From positions 1 to 64,000 of the forward strand of contig SOJW01000040.1 in assembly GCA_004375895.1 (NCBI GenBank): a stretch of 64,000 nt of DNA. Reading direction: 5' to 3'. Source of the stretch: Candidatus Stahliibacteriota bacterium (lineage in GTDB: Bacteria > Hydrothermota > Tepidihabitantia > B3-TA06). The notes under the pieces were generated by a model. It ran no database searches, was not told the DNA's origin, and saw only the letters and a program-made list of their open reading frames with translations. Made by a program: the position numbers and the translations under genes. Below, piece by piece: positions 1,350-56,441 of the stretch. The first letter of the stretch is position 1. Each line of letters opens with the position of its first letter.

Positions 1350-1350
1350 C

Positions 1351-2784
1351 TTATGATCTCTCTGCGTGAACGCTTTTGCCCTGCCGAGTGGTAACCTGTC
1401 TTCGTCGACGTTGAGATTGCAACGGTGTTCGATGGGGGAGTTTAGGGAAGAAAAACTGTTTGCGGTCGTCAATGGATAAGGTATTAATGGGGCCCTTTAC
1501 TAGGTTTTGCCACAGGAAGCGTGGTCCCTGCGCGCGCAGTTCCTCCCAGAAGAGCCGTTTAAGACCGCTGCGGTAAACGTCAAAGGGTCTGTTAAGGAAG
1601 GCTCTTACGGACTTTGCAAGATAATGCATTTGGGTAGATGATATAAGAGGATGTTTCCAAACTAGATGTTTAACATCGTAGTGGCGATAGGTACGATCGA
1701 AGATGCCGTATTTTGAGTCCAACTCATCCCACAGTTGAGTTTGGGGAAAGGGTGTGATGATGTTTGCAGTATGAGCATCAAAACCTACCTTTTTGAGTTG
1801 AATAGCATCCTCAATAGTCTCCTCTGCGGTCATATTCTCGTAACCTACCATGAAGGCTGCTATCCGGTACATACCCGGTTTTTCACGGGTGCGGCGGGCG
1901 AATTCCAACACCTGCCAAACCTTCTGTTTTTTCCGTACGATGTCCAGCGCATCCTGTTTCAGGGACTCTACCCCGATTGAAGGCAGGCGCAGACCTCGTT
2001 CATACCAGGTATCAAGATTAGCAAGAAAAATCGATGCACGAGACAGAGCCCACCAGCGGAACTTATAACGGGCTAAGAGATTGGTGATTTTATCTGCAAA
2101 CTTAGGGTAGATGCCGAATAGCTCGTCCAAAACCACTATCTCACTGATTCCCAGTTTGTGGTAGTATTCGAGTACCCGTTTGATGCTTGTAAAGTTGATT
2201 GTGAAATGCCTCTTTACAAACGCTGTGTTCTGACAAAAAGTGCACTCGAACGGGCATCCGTGGGCGGTATAGATCATGCCAAAAGTCAGGTGGCGAAGAG
2301 CCGGGAAGAGGGAAAAGTGAACCATCATTGCCGGATGCTCTACCTCGTTATCGGGTACACAGCGCCCAAAAACCCTGGCAATTTTATCTTCTGCGGATCC
2401 GATAAAGACACGATCCACCAGTGAGGGAATACTGTAGTCAAGCGCTCCGTAGTTGCCGGCCCATATTTCTTTTATCCCATGACGTCTGGCTTCTTCGATC
2501 ATCCGTATAATCTCACCGATCTGTTTCTGGTAGAAGCTGAATCCGACCACGTCCCAGCCTTCTTTTAACTTTTCTACATACTCATACCACAAGGGGTGTT
2601 CAAGTATTTCAACCTGAGGTACGTTTTGTTTAATGAAACGCAGTCCGGGACTTATCCTGCAGAAGGAACGTGCTCTGGGGAATTTAAAGGCGCTTACAAT
2701 ACCACTGACACTGAAATAATCGTTCTTATAGCGTCGGTAAGAGGTGCATAAGAGCACTTTTGGATTTGTAGAAAGTCCTTTCAT
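1351..2784 (-). CDS. Radical SAM protein (B12-binding-type architecture), paralogue 1
   Basis: CPFECTFC (CxxxCxxC) motif, GYENMTAEETIEDA; start at 2784 preferred because of a GGAGGAGG site upstream. Confidence 0.85.
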   Translation of the reverse strand: MKGLSTNPKVLLCTSYRRYKNDYFSVSGIVSAFKFPRARSFCRISPGLRFIKQNVPQVEILEHPLWYEYVEKLKEGWDVVGFSFYQKQIGEIIRMIEEARRHGIKEIWAGNYGALDYSIPSLVDRVFIGSAEDKIARVFGRCVPDNEVEHPAMMVHFSLFPALRHLTFGMIYTAHGCPFECTFCQNTAFVKRHFTINFTSIKRVLEYYHKLGISEIVVLDELFGIYPKFADKITNLLARYKFRWWALSRASIFLANLDTWYERGLRLPSIGVESLKQDALDIVRKKQKVWQVLEFARRTREKPGMYRIAAFMVGYENMTAEETIEDAIQLKKVGFDAHTANIITPFPQTQLWDELDSKYGIFDRTYRHYDVKHLVWKHPLISSTQMHYLAKSVRAFLNRPFDVYRSGLKRLFWEELRAQGPRFLWQNLVKGPINTLSIDDRKQFFFPKLPHRTPLQSQRRRRQVTTRQGKSVHAERS

Positions 2785-2877
2785 GAAGGCCTCCTCCTTC
2801 ATACTTAGGTCTTTCTCTTGAAAGATGCACTCTCTTTTGCCCGATTTGCAAAAAGAGATTGCAATAGAAAGCCAATC

Positions 2878-2905
2878 ATATTACTGCAATATTTTAATAT
2901 GTCAA
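2878..2905 (-). promoter_or_regulatory. Sigma70-like promoter for radical SAM paralogue 1
   Basis: Minus strand TTGACA-N16-TAATAT. Confidence 0.6.
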
Positions 2906-3087
2906 CCCCCTGGCCCCTAAAATCTCTACCCCTACTGTCCGACTTCTATTGTCCTTCGGACAATTTAGAAGTTTCGGCCTTTAGCCAAAACTTCACCCCA
3001 CAAATCCGCATCGCATCAGGTCAAAACAGAAGGCAACGACGCGGTCGTCGCACTGCATAGAGAAGGAAATGTGTGTGGTGATTTATT

Positions 3088-3169
3088 GGGGTCCCCGCGC
3101 GACTGCGCAGCAGGCGTGTGGGGTGTATATTGGGGTCCCCGCATGGATGCGTAGCAGACATGTGGGGTC
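3088..3169. repeat. Two tandem copies of the GGGGTCCC...TGGGGTGTA hairpin repeat (family G)
   Basis: GGGGTCCCCGCGCGACTGCGCAGCAGGCGTGTGGGGTGTA followed by GGGGTCCCCGCATGGATGCGTAGCAGACATGTGGGGTCA. Confidence 0.8.
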
Positions 3170-4448
3170 AAAAGAAGACCTGCTTGCGGTCGTTGATGAA
3201 GAGGGCGGCAATCGGGCCTTTAATCAGGTTGCGCCAGATGAAGCCTGCGCCGTCCTGGCGAAGCCCGCCCCAGATGAGTCTCGAAAGACCCTTATAGATG
3301 AAGTCAATAGGCCTGACAAGAAGTTTTATTATGGTGTTTTGAAGGTAGTGCATCTGTGCCGGTGAGATGTGGGGATGGTTCCAGACCAGGTGTTGTAATT
3401 TGTAATGACTGTAGTCGTGGTCAAAGATACCGTAGCGGGAGCTTAGCTTGTCCCACAACGGTGTCTGAGGGAAGGGTGTGATGACGGATACGGCGTGGGC
3501 GTCAAAGCCCGCCTGTTTGAGGCGAGCAGCATCTTCTAATGTCTGCTCAGCGGTCATGTCCTCGTGTCCGGTCATAAAGTAGCCTATCCGATACATGCCG
3601 TGCTTTTCGCTCGAGCGGCGGCAGAACTCGTAGATCTCCTCAGTGTTCTGTCGCTTATTCATCCCGTCAAGAGAAGTTTGCAGCATGGACTCCACGCCGA
3701 CAGATGGGATGCGCAGCCCGCGTTCATGCCACGTATCCAGATAGCGCACAAACAGCGAGGCGCGCGACTGAGCCCACCAGCGGAACTTGTAACGGGCAAA
3801 CAGACGGGTAAGCTTATCCGTAAACTCGGGGTAGATGCCGAAGAGTTCATCCATGGGAAACAGGTAGGTGACCCCCAGCTTCTTGTAGTAGCGCAGAACT
3901 CGCTCGATGCTTTCGAGGTTGATCGTGAAGCGGTGGCGTTCGAAGACAGGGGTCTGACAGAATGAGCACTTGTAAGGACAGCCGTGCGCGGTGTATAACA
4001 GGCCGAACGTAGCGTCGCGTATACCGGGGATGAGGGAGAAATGAACCATCATCACCGGATGCTGGATATCTTCGGGCCGGACCCGATAGCCGAAGACCTG
4101 GGCGATTTCATCCTCCGCAGGTCCGATAAAGACACGATCCACCAGTGAGGGAATACTGTAGTCAAGCGCTCCGTAGTTGCCGGCCCATATCTCGCGCACC
4201 CCATGACGCCGAGCCTCGGCCACCATCCTGCGAATCTCGCCGATCTCGTTCTGGTAGAAGCTGAACCCAACCACGTCCCAGCCTTCGCGGAGCCTGGCAA
4301 CGTACTCACGCCACATGGGATACTCAAGTATCTCAACTTCAGGTACGTTCTGCTTGATGAAGCGCAGCCCGGGGCTTACCCTGCGCGGCGCGTTTGCGAT
4401 GACAATGTAGTCGCCCCGAAAGCGTCGGTAGACGGTGCATAGGAGCAC
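3168..4448 (-). CDS. Radical SAM protein, paralogue 2
   Basis: CPYKCSFC motif; colinear with paralogue 1 over its length (RVSPGLRFIKQNVPEVEILEYP, GNYGALDYSIPSLVDRVFIG). GTG start at 4448; true start uncertain. Confidence 0.83.
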   Translation of the reverse strand: MLLCTVYRRFRGDYIVIANAPRRVSPGLRFIKQNVPEVEILEYPMWREYVARLREGWDVVGFSFYQNEIGEIRRMVAEARRHGVREIWAGNYGALDYSIPSLVDRVFIGPAEDEIAQVFGYRVRPEDIQHPVMMVHFSLIPGIRDATFGLLYTAHGCPYKCSFCQTPVFERHRFTINLESIERVLRYYKKLGVTYLFPMDELFGIYPEFTDKLTRLFARYKFRWWAQSRASLFVRYLDTWHERGLRIPSVGVESMLQTSLDGMNKRQNTEEIYEFCRRSSEKHGMYRIGYFMTGHEDMTAEQTLEDAARLKQAGFDAHAVSVITPFPQTPLWDKLSSRYGIFDHDYSHYKLQHLVWNHPHISPAQMHYLQNTIIKLLVRPIDFIYKGLSRLIWGGLRQDGAGFIWRNLIKGPIAALFINDRKQVFF

Positions 4449-4575
4449 CTTGGGATTGGTTGAGATGCCCTTCGTCAGAGCCGCCCTACCATAACTTCTC
4501 CCTGACCCTGGAAAAGCAAAATCGTAATCATAATGTTAACGTATGCTACTGAAATGTTTCAATCTGTCAACCTAT

Positions 4576-4615
4576 GGGGTCTGGGCACGACTGCGTAGCA
4601 GACGTATTGGGTGTA
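4576..4615. repeat. Degenerate family G hairpin repeat
   Basis: GGGGTCTGGGCACGACTGCGTAGCAGACGTATTGGGTGTA. Confidence 0.55.
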
Positions 4616-4670
4616 GTAAGATGTGGGGGAGTTTCAAGGAAGTCGGTCAAGTGAATAATATAAGCGACTT

Positions 4671-5402
4671 TTACGTGCATTCCGATTCGCGCTCCGCTCT
4701 TTCGGATAGCTCGGCGAATTGAATCGCCCGAAGATAGTAATCTTGATATTTTGGATTTATATTCATCCCGGCAAGATGTTCGTATAGCGAATGCGTATAC
4801 ATCTTTCGCCACTGGCGAGGCCAATCCAATACAAAACCTGGTATGTATTGGGTATTACCTGGCTTACGGTGGGCCGTATAATATAGCACATGTTCTGCCC
4901 TAAAGTAATGCTTGAAAGGGTATTCAGCAAAGGATGGTCCAAACGAGACGCCGAGCCACAGTTGTGTCTTTTCAACACGATCGGCTTCGACTAAAGGGTA
5001 GCCGAGGTATGTTCGTGTTCTGTTGTTCATATAGGCTTCACCAAGGGATATCCCACCGCGGAGTGGTATCCGCATGTTGAGCACTTCGCAAAAGAATTCT
5101 GCGCAGATACTACAGAACGTCCAGAAACGTGCTCTATCGTATATTGCCCAAAAGAGAATGGTATCACTAAAATAAGTTTTGTTGACGACCAATTCGGCTA
5201 AAGCAGTGCCTGTTATGGGGTAACCCTCTTCCGACTCACCGAGTGGTATTGTTGCATCAATTATCAAGCAGTTTCGCCTGCGCCTGACCACTTGAGTCAG
5301 TTGGTTGTATGCAAGTGTAAGATTTCTCAACCCATAAGAGCGAACTCGTTCCCCGAAGCCTAGTACATCAAATAATGCAACAACTGTGAGACGGTTATTC
5401 AC
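4671..5402 (-). CDS. Uncharacterised protein with class III nucleotidyl-cyclase-like features
   Basis: FDVLGFGERV...YFSDTILFW...IPLRGGISLGEAY...YLGYPLVEADRVEKTQ pattern typical of cyclase-fold proteins; 4-bp ATGA overlap with the upstream gene. Confidence 0.5.
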   Translation of the reverse strand: MNNRLTVVALFDVLGFGERVRSYGLRNLTLAYNQLTQVVRRRRNCLIIDATIPLGESEEGYPITGTALAELVVNKTYFSDTILFWAIYDRARFWTFCSICAEFFCEVLNMRIPLRGGISLGEAYMNNRTRTYLGYPLVEADRVEKTQLWLGVSFGPSFAEYPFKHYFRAEHVLYYTAHRKPGNTQYIPGFVLDWPRQWRKMYTHSLYEHLAGMNINPKYQDYYLRAIQFAELSERAERESECT

Positions 5403-5896
5403 CCTTTGAATTTACGTCGCAAGCTGGCGTTTACATGAGTGATATGAATGCCTTGAAGAGAAGAATCTATCTTGATTTCACCTCGCGATGCTAGATTCTT
5501 GAGGATATGTTGAATTATTATGCGTGGTGTACTTAATGCCTGCGCTATGAGAGCATCATTGAGAGCTTCGTTTTGGACGATTTGAGTACATGTTCGATTT
5601 TCAAGAGAATCATAATCGGGGTAAAACTGCTGCAGGTAGGCTTCAAAGCCAATTTCTTCAAAGAACATTACAGGGTTTTTAGGGTATCTGTCGAATCGAA
5701 TATATCCGTGGTTTTCCAGTATTTCAAAGGAATCTTCGATGTCATTTAGTGTGACCTGAGGATAATTTTCTTGAAGCACATCGAGTATCCCTTTGCCTTC
5801 AATGTTAGGAAGTACTCCGTCTTTCAAGGTGGCGTCTCCTGCCATTCTTAAAATCACCGTATCCAACTGTTCTGGTGCGAGGTTGTTATTTCCCAT
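5399..5896 (-). CDS. Hypothetical protein, possible winged-helix-like, co-transcribed with the cyclase-like gene
   Basis: Start MGNNNLAPEQ at 5896 preceded by AGGAGG at 5901-5906; two helical wH-like segments (ILDVLQENYPQVTLNDIEDSFEILENHGYIRFDR; RIIIQHILKNLASRGEIKID). Confidence 0.55.
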   Translation of the reverse strand: MGNNNLAPEQLDTVILRMAGDATLKDGVLPNIEGKGILDVLQENYPQVTLNDIEDSFEILENHGYIRFDRYPKNPVMFFEEIGFEAYLQQFYPDYDSLENRTCTQIVQNEALNDALIAQALSTPRIIIQHILKNLASRGEIKIDSSLQGIHITHVNASLRRKFKG

Positions 5897-5924
5897 TCTT
5901 CCTCCTGTGAATGAAATCGATTTT

Positions 5925-5952
5925 ATTATAAGCATTACTTATGAGGTGTCAA
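5925..5952 (-). promoter_or_regulatory. Near-consensus sigma70 promoter of the wH/cyclase-like module
   Basis: Minus strand TTGACA-N16-TATAAT. Confidence 0.75.
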
Positions 5953-6082
5953 CCCACTAGCCCCTGAAATCTCTTGTCCTTACTGCCCGACTTCGGCGGG
6001 TGTGTTATGTCCTAAAAGTTTGGAGCGAAGGCTCTAAATAATAAAAATGCCCCGAAGGGGTACGGGTGTGTTACGGGTAGGG

Positions 6083-6110
6083 TTGACATCATGGTTATCC
6101 GACCTAATAT
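6083..6110 (+). promoter_or_regulatory. Sigma70-like promoter for the FBP aldolase/phosphatase gene
   Basis: TTGACA-N16-TAATAT; AAGGAGG upstream of ATG 6150. Confidence 0.65.
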
Positions 6111-6149
6111 TGGGGTAAATTCTAATCTCACGGAAATCAAGGAGGATTA

Positions 6150-7241
6150 ATGAACGGAAAGTTAACCCTCTCCGTTATCAAGGCCGACGTCGGCGGCTAC
6201 GTGGGGCACTCGGCTTCTCACCCTGAGGTGCTGGCTAAAGCAGAAGCCATGCTGGATGCGGCTAAACGCGACGGAAAGTTAATTGACTTCTCGGTCCTCG
6301 CCTGTGGTGACGACCTTGAATTGATCATGACCCATACCCACGGCACCGATGCAGAGGCAATCCACAAGCTGGCCTGGGACACGTTCGTTGAAGGGACAGA
6401 GGTTGCCAAGAAACTGAAGTTGTATGGAGCGGGCCAAGACCTTTTAGCCGACGCGTTTTCCGGCAACGTTAAGGGCATGGGACCGGGTTGTGCGGAGATG
6501 GAGTTTGAAGAACGCCCCAGCGAACCGGTAATAATCTTCATGGCCGACAAGACCTCGCCCGGTGCGTGGAACTATCCTTTATACAAGATATTCGCCGACC
6601 CATTCAACACCGCAGGTCTGGTTATTGATCCCTCCATGCACGACGGTTTCATCTTCGAGATCAACGACCCTTACGAGAACAAGAAGGTAGGGCTCAACAC
6701 CCCGGAGGAGATGTATGATCTCCTGGCGCTGATCGGCAGCCACGAGCACTACGTTGTAGACACCATCTATCGCAAGGACGGGCTCCTGGCGGCCAAGGCG
6801 TCTACCCAGAAGCTGGCCCTGATCGCAGGCAAGTACGTGGGTAAGGACGATCCGGTGATGATCGTTCGCGCCCAGGCCGGTCTGCCAGCGGTGGGCGAGG
6901 TTCTGGAGCCGTTTTCATTCCCCCACGTGGTCTCAGGCTGGATGCGCGGCTCACACAACGGCCCTCTGATGCCTGTAAGCTTTGCCAATGCGACACCTAC
7001 TCGATTTGACGGGCCTCCGCGCGTGATCGCGGCAGGATTCCAGCTTGCCGAGGGTAAATTGATCGGCCCGCGCGACATGTTTGACGATCCCTCGTACGAT
7101 AAAGCCAGGGCCATGGCCAACGAGGTAGCCGATTACCTGCGCCGTCACGGTCCGTTCGAGCCGGGCAGACTGCCCGAGGCCGATATGGAGTACACCACCC
7201 TGCCGCAGGTGCTCGAGAAACTTACCGATCGGTTCTCCTAG
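6150..7241 (+). CDS. Bifunctional fructose-1,6-bisphosphate aldolase/phosphatase (archaeal type)
   Basis: MNGKLTLSVIKADVGGYVGHSASHPEVL, CGDDLELIMTHTHG, PLYKIFADPFNTAGLVIDPSMHDGF, AFQLAEGKL/DMFDDPSYD-like family signature. Confidence 0.9.
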   Translation: MNGKLTLSVIKADVGGYVGHSASHPEVLAKAEAMLDAAKRDGKLIDFSVLACGDDLELIMTHTHGTDAEAIHKLAWDTFVEGTEVAKKLKLYGAGQDLLADAFSGNVKGMGPGCAEMEFEERPSEPVIIFMADKTSPGAWNYPLYKIFADPFNTAGLVIDPSMHDGFIFEINDPYENKKVGLNTPEEMYDLLALIGSHEHYVVDTIYRKDGLLAAKASTQKLALIAGKYVGKDDPVMIVRAQAGLPAVGEVLEPFSFPHVVSGWMRGSHNGPLMPVSFANATPTRFDGPPRVIAAGFQLAEGKLIGPRDMFDDPSYDKARAMANEVADYLRRHGPFEPGRLPEADMEYTTLPQVLEKLTDRFS

Positions 7242-8101
7242 TGTTTTCACGCAAGAACCTGCGCCCCGCCCGTAACACCCGCAAGAAGACCAAGCTCAAG
7301 GACGGGCTGTGGCTCAAGTGCGAGAGCTGCGGCGAGATACTCTACCGCCGGGAACTCGATCAATCCTGCTGGATCTGCCCCAAGTGCAACTTCCACTTCC
7401 GGATCGGGCACCGTAAATACATAGAACTTCTCCTGGACGAAGGTGGACTGGAAGAGGTGGATAAAGGCCTGGTGCCTGTTGACCCTTTGCGCTTCCCCAA
7501 GTACAAGGAGAAATACAGATCCTCACGCAAGAAGACCGGCATGGAGGAGGGGATCGTTTCAGGCAGGGCTGTAATTCAAGGGATAGAGGTTATCTTCGCG
7601 GCCACGGACTTCGCGTTCATGGGTGGGAGCATGGGTTCTGTTGTGGGCGAAAGGGTTGCTCGTGCGGCAAGACTCGCTCTTGCCGAACATAAACCGTTCG
7701 TTATGCTTACCGCATCCGGAGGAGGCGCCAGAATGCAGGAAGGGATTTTCTCCCTCATGCAGATGCCCAAGACCTCGGCTGAGGTGGCCCTTCTAAAGCA
7801 GGCGCACATCCCCTACATCAATATCCTGACCCATCCGACGATGGCCGGTGTTATGGCCTCGTTCGCTTCCCTGGGCGACGTAATAATCGCCGAACCCGGT
7901 GCACTTCTGGGCTTTACCGGCCCCCGTGTGATCGAGCAGACTATAGGCGAGAAGCTTCCGCCCGGATTCCAGCGATCGGAGTTTTTATTGGAGCACGGTT
8001 TCGTGGACATCGTCTGCTCCCGCCGTGACCTCAGGGAGACCGTGGCCAGGATCCTGAGCCTTCTTGCCGAACCTCATAAGGAGCCGTCGACTCAAACCTG
8101 A
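7241..8101 (+). CDS. accD: Acetyl-CoA carboxylase carboxyltransferase subunit beta
   Basis: N-terminal zinc ribbon (CESCGE...CPKCNFH), GGSMGSVVGERVARAARLALAEHKPFVMLTASGGGARMQEG. Confidence 0.95.
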   Translation: MFSRKNLRPARNTRKKTKLKDGLWLKCESCGEILYRRELDQSCWICPKCNFHFRIGHRKYIELLLDEGGLEEVDKGLVPVDPLRFPKYKEKYRSSRKKTGMEEGIVSGRAVIQGIEVIFAATDFAFMGGSMGSVVGERVARAARLALAEHKPFVMLTASGGGARMQEGIFSLMQMPKTSAEVALLKQAHIPYINILTHPTMAGVMASFASLGDVIIAEPGALLGFTGPRVIEQTIGEKLPPGFQRSEFLLEHGFVDIVCSRRDLRETVARILSLLAEPHKEPSTQT

Positions 8102-29227: not shown

Positions 29228-29785
29228 CTAGTCTTTCTTCCCCTCGATCCGACGAGCCAGGGAGCCAAGCTCATCTATCTTCGGTTGAATATTCTCTATC
29301 TCTTCACGAGGGATACCCTTTTCTTCGAAATCCTTCACCGCACGCTTCAGGCTCCAGAGCTTCATCAGAAAAACATTAAGCGCCCGTTTGCGTCTGCCTT
29401 CGGCCTTCTCTGCCTCCTCGTCTTCTTCCTCACCACGGGCCGCCTCGATCTCCTCAAGCTCGGCGGAGACCGCATCCCCTAAGGCCTCGATATGACGCAG
29501 TAAGCGCTTGGCATCCCCACGGGAAAGATCGTGTTCCAGAAGCACCACAGCCCCGGTAAGGCTCATGGTGCGAACGCCGCCCTCGCGCTTTAATAGGGTG
29601 TCAGGAACGACCACTGTATCCACCACAACCACCGTGTCGACTATCGTATCCACCGCGTGCTGCTCGCTGGTATCCTCTGAGGTCTCATCCTGGATTATGA
29701 CCACTATCTTCTCTTCCCTCGCTTTCCGGCAAAAAATCGCTACCAGAAGCAAAGATAAGGGAAGAAGCAAAACTAACTTCCTCAT
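29228..29785 (-). CDS. Hypothetical coiled-coil envelope protein
   Basis: N-terminal hydrophobic segment, VDTVVVVDTVVVPDT low-complexity and charged helices; overlaps the upstream cyclase gene by 4 bp. Confidence 0.6.
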   Translation of the reverse strand: MRKLVLLLPLSLLLVAIFCRKAREEKIVVIIQDETSEDTSEQHAVDTIVDTVVVVDTVVVPDTLLKREGGVRTMSLTGAVVLLEHDLSRGDAKRLLRHIEALGDAVSAELEEIEAARGEEEDEEAEKAEGRRKRALNVFLMKLWSLKRAVKDFEEKGIPREEIENIQPKIDELGSLARRIEGKKD

Positions 29786-31104
29786 GTCTTAACCTCCTTG
29801 GGTTGAAGTAGTTCAAATACCTCTATCTCGGCATCTCCGTAATCTTCTATTCTTATGCGCCGTGGAAGGAACGTCAAACGCTCGCCCACAAGCTCACGAG
29901 TACGAGCGGATACAAGTATCTCGCCCTGCATAGCCGACTCCTGCAACCGCTCGGCGAAGTTGACGCTCTCCCCTATGATTGTATACTCCATCCTGCGGGA
30001 AGAGCCGATGTTGCCTGCAATGGCCGTACCGGTATGTATCCCCATCCCCATCTGGATCTGGACCTTGCCTTCGTTCTCACGCTGGAAATTCAGACTGGCG
30101 ATTACACGTTTTATCTCAAGGGCTGCCTGACATGCCCGCAAAGCGTAGTCACTCTGAGACAGAGGTGCATTCCAAAAAGCGAGGAAGCCATCGCCTATAA
30201 ACTTATCCAGCACCCCTTCATTCTCGATTATCACGTCAATTATTGGGGCGAAGTAGTGGTTGAGCAAAGCTATGATCTCCTCGGGGGACATATGCTGGGA
30301 AAACTTAGTGAAGCCGCGGATGTCGGCAAAGAGAATCGAGACCTCTCGCCGATCACCCTTAAGATTAACGAATTCCTTTTCGGAGAGTATCTTCTCCGCA
30401 ACCTGACGGGTCACGTATCGTTTGAAGATACCCTTAACGAACTCCCCCTCTTCCAGCCCGCGCATCATCCAGTTGAACGCCTCACTCAAGACACCAACCT
30501 CGTCTCTTGAGGTGATGCTGACCCGGGTAGAGAGATTCCCTCGTCCCACCTCCTGCATCGCAGAGGCAAGTGACCGCAGGGGCTTTGTGCTTTGCCTGAC
30601 GAAGAGAAGGACAAGCGCTATCCCGACCACAAACGCGGCTGCCCCTACAACAACAATCCGCCAGACAAAACCCCATATCCCACGCTCAAGGTTGGCCAAC
30701 GAATAAACAAGGTCTATGGTATATGCCACCTTGTTTGTCTGCGGGTCTTGTATCTCAGTATGGTAACGTCTAGTACGCCCTCCCTCCGGCGTCTCGCGCT
30801 TCTCGCTTAAAACCGTACCGTCTGATGCTATAGCGATCTCCGTAAGCTCAAGATCGTACCCTGCTGCGCTAAACCGTCTGGTTAAGAGATCGGAGATATA
30901 AGCTTCAAGCTCCTCGGAAGCCATATACTTATGTGCAAGATCTATGGAGTTGATTACGTCAAGCACCCTGTATTGGGCATCGCGTTCCTTAGCCTGGATA
31001 AAGAAGTGGGCCGACATCACCAGTACCCCGGCCAGCAGTAGGGCGTAAAGCGCGCTAAAGATTATAACCAGCTTACATGCAAGCCCCATGCCCTGCCTTT
31101 TCAT
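29782..31104 (-). CDS. Membrane HAMP plus class III adenylate/guanylate cyclase
   Basis: HAMP region; VSILFADIRGFTKFSQHMSPEE, FIGDGFLAFWNAP, GIHTGTAIAGNIGSSRRMEYTIIGESVNFAERLQ. Confidence 0.95.
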   Translation of the reverse strand: MKRQGMGLACKLVIIFSALYALLLAGVLVMSAHFFIQAKERDAQYRVLDVINSIDLAHKYMASEELEAYISDLLTRRFSAAGYDLELTEIAIASDGTVLSEKRETPEGGRTRRYHTEIQDPQTNKVAYTIDLVYSLANLERGIWGFVWRIVVVGAAAFVVGIALVLLFVRQSTKPLRSLASAMQEVGRGNLSTRVSITSRDEVGVLSEAFNWMMRGLEEGEFVKGIFKRYVTRQVAEKILSEKEFVNLKGDRREVSILFADIRGFTKFSQHMSPEEIIALLNHYFAPIIDVIIENEGVLDKFIGDGFLAFWNAPLSQSDYALRACQAALEIKRVIASLNFQRENEGKVQIQMGMGIHTGTAIAGNIGSSRRMEYTIIGESVNFAERLQESAMQGEILVSARTRELVGERLTFLPRRIRIEDYGDAEIEVFELLQPKEVKT

Positions 31105-55041: not shown

Positions 55042-55114
55042 AGCGGACGACGGGACTTGAACCCGCGACCACAGGCTTGGGAAGCCTGTGCTCTACCAAC
55101 TGAGCTACATCCGC
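55042..55114 (-). tRNA. tRNA-Gly (anticodon CCC)
   Basis: Minus strand GCGGATGTAGCTCAGTTGGTAGAGCACAGGCTTCCCAAGCCTGTGGTCGCGGGTTCAAGTCCCGTCGTCCGC; promoter TTGACA-N16-TATACT upstream. Confidence 0.93.
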
Positions 55115-55277: not shown

Positions 55278-56441
55278 ATGGCATTGACATTGCAAGCGAG
55301 GAAAGCCGTGACTAAAGAGACTTTCAAGCGCTACCAGAAAGCTCCTAAGAAGGAGAAGACGAGGATACTGGACGAGTTTGTGGCTTTGACTGGCTACACG
55401 AGACACCATGCCTCGTGGGTTTTAATGACCTGGGAGAAGCGCAGGCCCCCAAAGCGCACCAGGTCGAGGCCCCTTATCTACGACCGCAAGGTGTTTAAGG
55501 CACTGCGTAAGGTCTGGATAGTATGCGACTGTATCTGCGGCAAGCGCCTGGCTCCCTATCTTAAAGAGATATTGCCTATTCTTATATCATACGGTGAGTT
55601 AACGGTGGATGGCGAGACCAGGGATAAGCTGGTTAGGATAAGCGCTGCTACTATAGACCGGCTTCTGGCATCGGAGAAGGCGAAGTATAAACTAAAGCCC
55701 AGATCGAAGCCTGGAACCTCACTACTGAATCGGATACCGGTAAAGACGTTCTCACAGTGGGACAGGAGCAAGCCTGGTCAGGTTCAGGTGGATCTGGTAG
55801 AGCATAACGGAGGTATCACCAGAGGCGAATACGCCTGCAGCCTGGTTATGACCGATCCCTTCAGCGGCTGGACAGAGGTTCGTGCAGTAAAGAACAAGTT
55901 AATGTTACTTTTTGCCCAAGGCCAAAAAATCCGCAACGGAAAACAGGTAAGACCAACCTGTGAGTTGTGCTTCCTGCGATCTTTTGTTCCGCAGGAACAA
56001 AAGGAGCATAAAAGGCGTTACAAGAAGAATGATAACTTCTGCGTAGAGCAGAAGAACGGTAACGTAGTGAGAAGAGCCGTAGGTTACGGTCGTTACAGCG
56101 GGGAGCGGGAAGTGAGTATGCTGAACCGGTTGTACGAGTCTCTTAGATTATACGTAAACTACTTCCAGCCCATGATGAAGCTCGCCGAGAAGAGCAGGAT
56201 AGGAAGTAAGGTAAGTAAACGTTACGACGAGGCCAAGACACCTTATCGCAGGCTCCTTGAGTACACAGAAGTTTCTCCAGAGCTGAAGGAGTTTCTAAAC
56301 AGACGGTATGAGGCATTGAATCCAGCGGAGTTGAAAAGAGAAATAACACGTTATCAACAAGAACTATTTACATACTCTTCCCGCAGACGAGGTATAAGGA
56401 AACCTGAGATGGACAAAACCTTACTTTCAGGTAGAATTTAG
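55278..56441 (+). pseudogene. Integrase-core (rve, DDE) transposase lacking the central catalytic segment
   Basis: TGYTRHHASWVL, GKRLAPYLKEILP, DLVEHNGGITRGEYACSLVMTDPFSGWTEVRAVKNK ... YKKNDNFCVEQKNGNVVRRAVGYGRYSGE; expected DSDNGSEF-type motif replaced. Confidence 0.8.
55976..56009 (+). repeat. Family H hairpin repeat copy 7 (inside transposase ORF)
   Basis: GCGATCTTTTGTTCCGCAGGAACAAAAGGAGCAT. Confidence 0.88.

What the first reader, a model, noticed from the sequence alone, without database searches (positions are those of the whole stretch)
4671..5952. Candidate two-gene signalling or defence module: winged-helix-like protein plus class III cyclase-like protein
Seen: ATGA-coupled genes under a near-perfect TTGACA-N16-TATAAT promoter, bracketed by hairpin repeats. 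The second protein has FDVLGF, YFSDTILFW and RGGISLGEAY spacing reminiscent of class III nucleotidyl cyclases but no canonical lineage. Established: class III cyclase folds are used in antiphage signalling (for example Pycsar) and in many unassigned prokaryotic proteins. Inference: possible nucleotide-signalling module with an unknown effector.
Basis: partly seen in the sequence, partly recalled or inferred. Interest (0 to 1): 0.6.

Follow-up and report, generated by a model that had tools for sequence, protein, structure and literature searches.

The report
Mobile cyclase-like pair with TIR-type sensor
A small two-gene insert, present here and absent from the closest relative at this site, pairs a divergent nucleotide-cyclase-like enzyme with a winged-helix-like domain otherwise found attached to bacterial TIR immune proteins; a role in signalling or phage defence is plausible but untested.

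Summary
Two overlapping genes (GTGA, not ATGA) lie on the minus strand behind a perfect TTGACA-N16-TATAAT promoter; the flanking hairpins are not above chance. The pair is an accessory insert: a same-genus genome keeps about 95% identical flanks (window up to 4572 and from 6078) but has unrelated DNA between them, and the insert is GC-poor (44% against 55-57%).

Gene 2 really has the class III nucleotidyl cyclase fold: AlphaFold pLDDT 89.6, and all 50 best PDB matches are class III cyclases. Both metal-binding Asp are invariant in 28 of 28 relatives, but the catalytic Asn is lost in all 28. It belongs to an unnamed family without a Pfam model, spread over at least eight phyla, phages and a plasmid, usually without a fixed partner. 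It is not recognised as Pycsar PycC, and no Pycsar effector was found.

Gene 1 is homologous (27-30% identity) to the C-terminal half of TIR proteins that match the bSEFIR defence profile. The gene 1-gene 2 pairing was not found elsewhere.

Best reading: a mobile sensor/regulator plus noncanonical cyclase. Catalysis and defence are unproven.

The parts
4573..6077 (.). accessory insert carrying both genes
   Evidence: In same-genus genome G057 the DNA up to window 4572 (96% identical) and from 6078 on (95%) is kept, but 565 bp of unrelated DNA replaces this stretch; GC 44% against 55-57% in the flanks, GC3 0.38-0.45 against 0.70-0.71.
5399..5896 (-). gene 1 (P1), 165 aa, winged-helix-like protein homologous to the C-terminal half of TIR_2 proteins
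   Evidence: E 7.9e-15 and 2.3e-11 to G043 and G057 TIR proteins; 8e-8 to Rhodoferax antarcticus plasmid TIR protein WP_244899668.1; weak TrmB HTH match (stronger in relative L017).
4671..5402 (-). gene 2 (P2), 243 aa, divergent class III nucleotidyl cyclase-like protein
   Evidence: AlphaFold2 pLDDT 89.6; PDB Foldseek hits all class III cyclases; profile match to canonical cyclases E 1.6e-4 against 0.15-0.94 in shuffled controls.
5399..5402 (-). GTGA overlap of gene 1 stop and gene 2 start
   Evidence: Sequence.
5925..5952 (-). TTGACA-N16-TATAAT promoter, 12/12 match
   Evidence: one of two exact consensus matches in 64 kb.
5901..5906 (-). AGGAGG ribosome-binding site of gene 1
   Evidence: Sequence.
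5910..5927 (-). dyad AATAAAATCGATTTCATT just downstream of the -10 box, possible operator (inference)
   Evidence: 8 of 9 pairs; 56 of 5000 mononucleotide shuffles of the region as good.
5928..5942 (-). dyad ATAAG-N5-CTTAT overlapping the spacer and -10 box, possible operator (inference)
   Evidence: Sequence; significance not tested.
5361..5369 (-). codons of D12-V13-L14 in FDVLGF: first metal Asp
   Evidence: D12 invariant in 28/28; aligned with the first metal Asp of canonical cyclases.
5160..5171 (-). codons of F78-S79-D80-T81: second metal Asp
   Evidence: D80 invariant in 28/28; aligned with GD of canonical cyclases.
4977..4991 (-). codons of V138 (position of the canonical Asn) to R142 (position of the canonical Arg)
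   Evidence: Asn replaced by I/V/T in 28/28; Arg kept in the window and in 7/28.

Best explanation
A horizontally acquired two-gene cassette of about 1.5 kb. Gene 2 is a soluble, noncanonical class III cyclase-family enzyme that binds an NTP through a two-metal Asp site and makes a nucleotide-derived signal, most likely a cyclic mononucleotide. Gene 1 is a winged-helix-like sensor/regulator, the same module that forms the C-terminal half of bSEFIR-like TIR proteins. It would control gene 2 by sensing an invader-related cue or by repressing the shared promoter. Shown: co-localised insert, promoter, class III fold (predicted model), metal Asp, homology of gene 1 to TIR-protein C-terminal halves, mobility of the gene 2 family. 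Inferred: catalysis, the product, control of gene 2 by gene 1, the receptor (host cyclic-nucleotide-binding proteins are candidates), and any defence role.
For: Class III fold. Metal Asp 28/28. Profile homology to canonical cyclases with shuffled controls. Insert. Gene 1 homology to TIR proteins with bSEFIR, Thoeris and TIR profile matches. Gene 2 family on mobile or defence-linked DNA: nearest relative (49%) between terminase and portal genes of a phage contig; another inside a phage structural operon; plasmid and phage records; one member between hsdS and hsdR of a type I restriction operon with 4-nt overlaps on both sides; one followed by a gene overlapping by 1 nt that matches a PADLOC TIR effector. 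The genome has two cNMP-binding-domain proteins. Tree mixes phyla and phages.
Against: The canonical transition-state Asn is absent in all 28 relatives and the Arg in most. The gene 1-gene 2 pair was found nowhere else. Neighbours of gene 2 relatives are not enriched in membrane proteins (13 of 41 against 28% background) and most relatives lack an obvious effector. The genome lacks TIR_2 and PycTM hits. No defence genes surround the pair. The gene 1 model alone is poor (pLDDT 50), so the winged-helix fold rests on weak profile matches.
Confidence: 0.42

Rival explanations
1. Gene 1 is an ordinary autorepressor and gene 2 a self-sufficient enzyme carried as phage or plasmid cargo; the two form a transcription unit but not a sensor-enzyme complex.
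For: Strong promoter with two dyads; gene 2 relatives occur alone, often in phages; pairing not conserved.
Against: Gene 1's nearest relatives are fused to TIR domains rather than being free repressors; gene 1 aligns over nearly its full length with them.
Confidence: 0.3
2. Gene 2 is catalytically dead and acts as a nucleotide- or metal-binding sensor, decoy or sponge, with gene 1 as its output.
For: Canonical Asn lost 28/28, Arg lost in 21/28.
Against: Both metal Asp invariant together with R115, A140 and G151. PMC4886424 notes that Asn is missing from several established class III cyclases, citing Rv1900c.
Confidence: 0.18
3. It is a Pycsar system: gene 2 a PycC cyclase, gene 1 its effector.
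For: Class III fold and two genes; one distant relative is followed by a TIR-like gene.
Against: No PADLOC match for gene 1 or 2 at E 10 or for relatives; no TM, TIR or cyclic-nucleotide-binding Pfam match in gene 1; no PycTM or TIR_2 hit in the genome.
Confidence: 0.05

Closest known systems
Canonical class III adenylyl/guanylyl cyclases (for example Rv1264, CyaC, Ma1120, soluble guanylate cyclase)
   Same: Fold, order of motifs, both metal Asp, Arg142 in the window protein.
   Different: No Pfam match; catalytic Asn replaced by Val; C-terminal region with DWPRxWR motif; stand-alone soluble protein.
DUF2652 cyclase-like family (PMC4886424)
   Same: Single-domain soluble protein of about 240 aa; Asp/Asp kept; in its mycobacterial members Asn replaced by Ile with Arg kept.
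   Different: Gene 2 did not hit the Pfam model; other taxa; gene 2 family lies on phages and mobile DNA.
Pycsar (PycC plus PycTM or PycTIR; PMC11224242)
   Same: Class III fold with two metal Asp in a small two-gene unit.
   Different: Not recognised by PADLOC profiles; gene 1 is no known Pycsar effector; no fixed effector next to relatives.
bSEFIR / TIR_2 single-gene defence proteins
   Same: Gene 1 is homologous to the C-terminal half of TIR_2 proteins that match the bSEFIR profile.
   Different: Gene 1 has no TIR or SEFIR domain.

Membership tests
Class III nucleotidyl cyclase superfamily | Class III catalytic fold | tested here: met
   all 50 listed PDB matches are class III cyclases, probability 0.97-1.00 (predicted model, not a solved structure).
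Class III nucleotidyl cyclase superfamily | Two metal-binding Asp | tested here: met
   D12 and D80, 28/28; aligned to canonical Asp.
Class III nucleotidyl cyclase superfamily | Transition-state Asn and Arg | tested here: not met
   Asn replaced by V/I/T in 28/28; Arg present in the window, 7/28 overall. Asn is not universal in active cyclases (PMC4886424), so this lowers the claim of canonical catalysis rather than superfamily membership.
Class III nucleotidyl cyclase superfamily | Cyclase activity as a dimer | not testable with these tools
   Needs purified protein.
Pycsar | PycC cyclase by profile | tested here: not met
   No PADLOC match.
Pycsar | Adjacent PycTM or PycTIR effector | tested here: not met
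DUF2652 | Match to the Pfam DUF2652 model | tested here: not met
   No Pfam family at E 10 for gene 2; DUF2652 not among the families matched by 28 relatives.
bSEFIR / TIR defence proteins (gene 1) | TIR or SEFIR domain | tested here: not met
bSEFIR / TIR defence proteins (gene 1) | C-terminal region homologous to gene 1 | tested here: met
   the TIR proteins match PDLC03957 bSEFIR.
Winged-helix fold (gene 1) | HTH/wHTH fold | tested here: inconclusive
   TrmB E 0.034 for gene 1, 5.8e-4 for relative L017 with HTH_Crp_2 and wHTH matches; single-sequence model unreliable.

The most novel reading that the evidence does not exclude
A new type of nucleotide-signalling defence module in which the sensor half of bSEFIR-like TIR proteins has been split off and drives a noncanonical class III cyclase in trans, within an unnamed, phage-mobile cyclase family.
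Probability: 0.17. Interest if true: 0.78.

Novelty: new variant of a known kind. Interest (0 to 1): 0.48.

Why it matters
The gene 2 family is widespread (Bacillota, Pseudomonadota, Nitrospirota, Nitrospinota, Chlorobiota, Planctomycetota, Spirochaetota, Verrucomicrobiota, the window's own phylum, and phages), has no Pfam model, and keeps its metal site without the usual catalytic Asn. If active, it adds a mobile branch of cyclic-nucleotide enzymes next to Pycsar. If inactive, it suggests a phage-borne nucleotide sensor or decoy. The link between gene 1 and TIR-protein C-terminal halves gives a direct way to ask what that domain senses, which I could not find answered in the papers searched.

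Tried and rejected
Pycsar membership (PADLOC, PycTM and TIR_2 in own genome): rejected. Membrane-effector partners of the gene 2 family: several seen, but 13 of 41 operon-like neighbours against 28% background is no enrichment (my own ORF calls and a simple hydropathy test). Flanking hairpins or repeats: not above chance. Real PycC sequences sought through PycTM neighbours in the class of Methylobacter: none of the loci inspected showed a cyclase. Gene 1 in viral contigs: nothing. L007 and L038 hits to gene 2 dropped as false (a methyltransferase-like membrane protein, by eye; a DNA methyltransferase). Gene 1 structure: single-sequence model too poor to search. Profile search of the PDB by sequence found nothing with A5, and only a weak cyclase hit with A1 (5o5k, E 0.79). 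BFVD search: no match at E 0.001, although guanylate-cyclase-domain proteins are among the top hits. TIR-like partner of L004: no PDB relative by sequence, so it rests on the PADLOC match alone.

Full report
Anatomy. Two minus-strand genes share a transcription unit: promoter TTGACA-N16-TATAAT at 5952-5925 (12 of 12), AGGAGG at 5906-5901, gene 1 from ATG 5896 to 5399 (165 aa), gene 2 from GTG 5402 to 4671 (243 aa), overlapping by GTGA. The hairpins are real as short stems but not stronger than shuffled sequence, and no direct repeats bracket the pair. Two dyads lie over the promoter; an operator role is inference.

The pair is an insert. The neighbouring gene on the right (6150-7241) is 98% identical at protein level in G057 of the same genus. 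There the DNA corresponding to window 2990-4572 is 96% and 6078-8095 is 95% identical, but the 1505 bp with the two genes are replaced by 565 bp of unrelated DNA. Three other genomes of the genus align to the sequence before about 1347 and after about 6064 only, with little DNA between in at least two of them. The insert has 44% GC against 55-57% in the flanks, and GC3 of 0.38-0.45 against about 0.71. No target-site duplication was recognised.

Gene 2 is a class III cyclase-fold protein. Pfam, NCBIfam and PADLOC do not recognise it; PHROG_23933, of unknown function, matches it and 23 of the other 27 relatives. The AlphaFold2 model built on 28 relatives has pLDDT 89.6, and the 50 best PDB structures are all class III cyclases. 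TM-scores are moderate: up to 0.67 by target length, 0.36-0.52 by query length. A profile comparison with canonical cyclases from the same class gives E 1.6e-4, against 0.15-0.94 for 20 column-shuffled controls. Only the first motif is aligned confidently by default, but the extended alignment puts D12 and D80 on the two metal Asp, V138 on the catalytic Asn and R142 on the catalytic Arg. D12 and D80 are invariant in 28 of 28; the Asn is I/V/T in 28 of 28; the Arg is present in 7, the window included. Loss of the Asn has precedent: the DUF2652 family has Asp/Asp and Ile for Asn, and its describers note active cyclases without Asn (PMC4886424).

Distribution of gene 2. The nearest relative (49%) is on a phage contig between a terminase-like and a portal gene. 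Others are in a phage structural operon (L067), a Methylobacter plasmid and a phage record, and between hsdS and hsdR of a type I restriction operon with 4-nt overlaps (L052). The tree joins Bacillota, Nitrospirota, Nitrospinota, Chlorobiota, Pseudomonadota and a phage in one supported group with the window protein. Partners vary: an MBL-fold gene in L002, a TIR-effector-like gene in L004, PIN-domain genes, or none. Membrane-protein neighbours are not enriched. So gene 2 behaves as mobile cargo without a fixed partner.

Gene 1. Its relatives in other genomes of the phylum and on a Rhodoferax plasmid are TIR_2 proteins, and gene 1 aligns along nearly its whole length with their C-terminal half. 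These TIR proteins match PADLOC bSEFIR and several other TIR-defence profiles. TrmB, HTH_Crp_2 and wHTH matches in one relative suggest tandem winged helices, but this is weak and the single-sequence model is unreliable. None of 10 genomes with gene 2 relatives held a gene 1 relative; that search had no positive control inside the set. In the window's phylum the two families overlap only in the window genome among convincing hits.

Mechanism. I think the most likely arrangement is a sensor or regulator (gene 1) controlling an NTP-using enzyme (gene 2). Supporting facts are the shared insert and transcription unit, the intact metal site, and the occurrence of the gene 1 module on TIR proteins. 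Steps not shown: catalysis, product, complex, trigger and receptor. The genome has three matches to canonical class III cyclases and two to cNMP-binding domains, so a cyclic nucleotide could act through host receptors. It lacks TIR_2 and PycTM hits. The autorepressor rival is nearly as likely.

Verdict. The cyclase-fold identification is right, the defence reading is plausible but unproven, and the claim of a conserved two-gene module is not supported. Novelty lies in the unnamed mobile cyclase family with a noncanonical active site and in the sharing of the gene 1 domain with TIR proteins.

Noticed in passing
window 29782-31104 (-): Canonical class III cyclase (membrane/HAMP-type N-terminus by eye, GESVNFAER motif); three PF00211 matches in the genome in all, and two cNMP-binding-domain proteins.
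   Followed up: partly
window 1350-6077: Variable spot between an alcohol-dehydrogenase-like gene (312-1349) and the gene at 6150-7241: two radical-SAM-like genes plus the pair here, at least one radical-SAM-like gene in G057, little or nothing in other genomes of the genus.
   Followed up: partly
L052 4498-5307: Gene 2 relative inserted with 4-nt overlaps between hsdS and hsdR of a type I restriction operon in Parvibaculum.
   Followed up: partly
L018 707-1504: Unannotated 265-aa gene overlapping the end of the G057 TIR plus winged-helix-like gene; no Pfam or PADLOC match.
   Followed up: partly
window 55278-56441: Integrase/transposase-like ORF close to tRNA-Gly at 55042-55114; judged by eye.
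   Followed up: no
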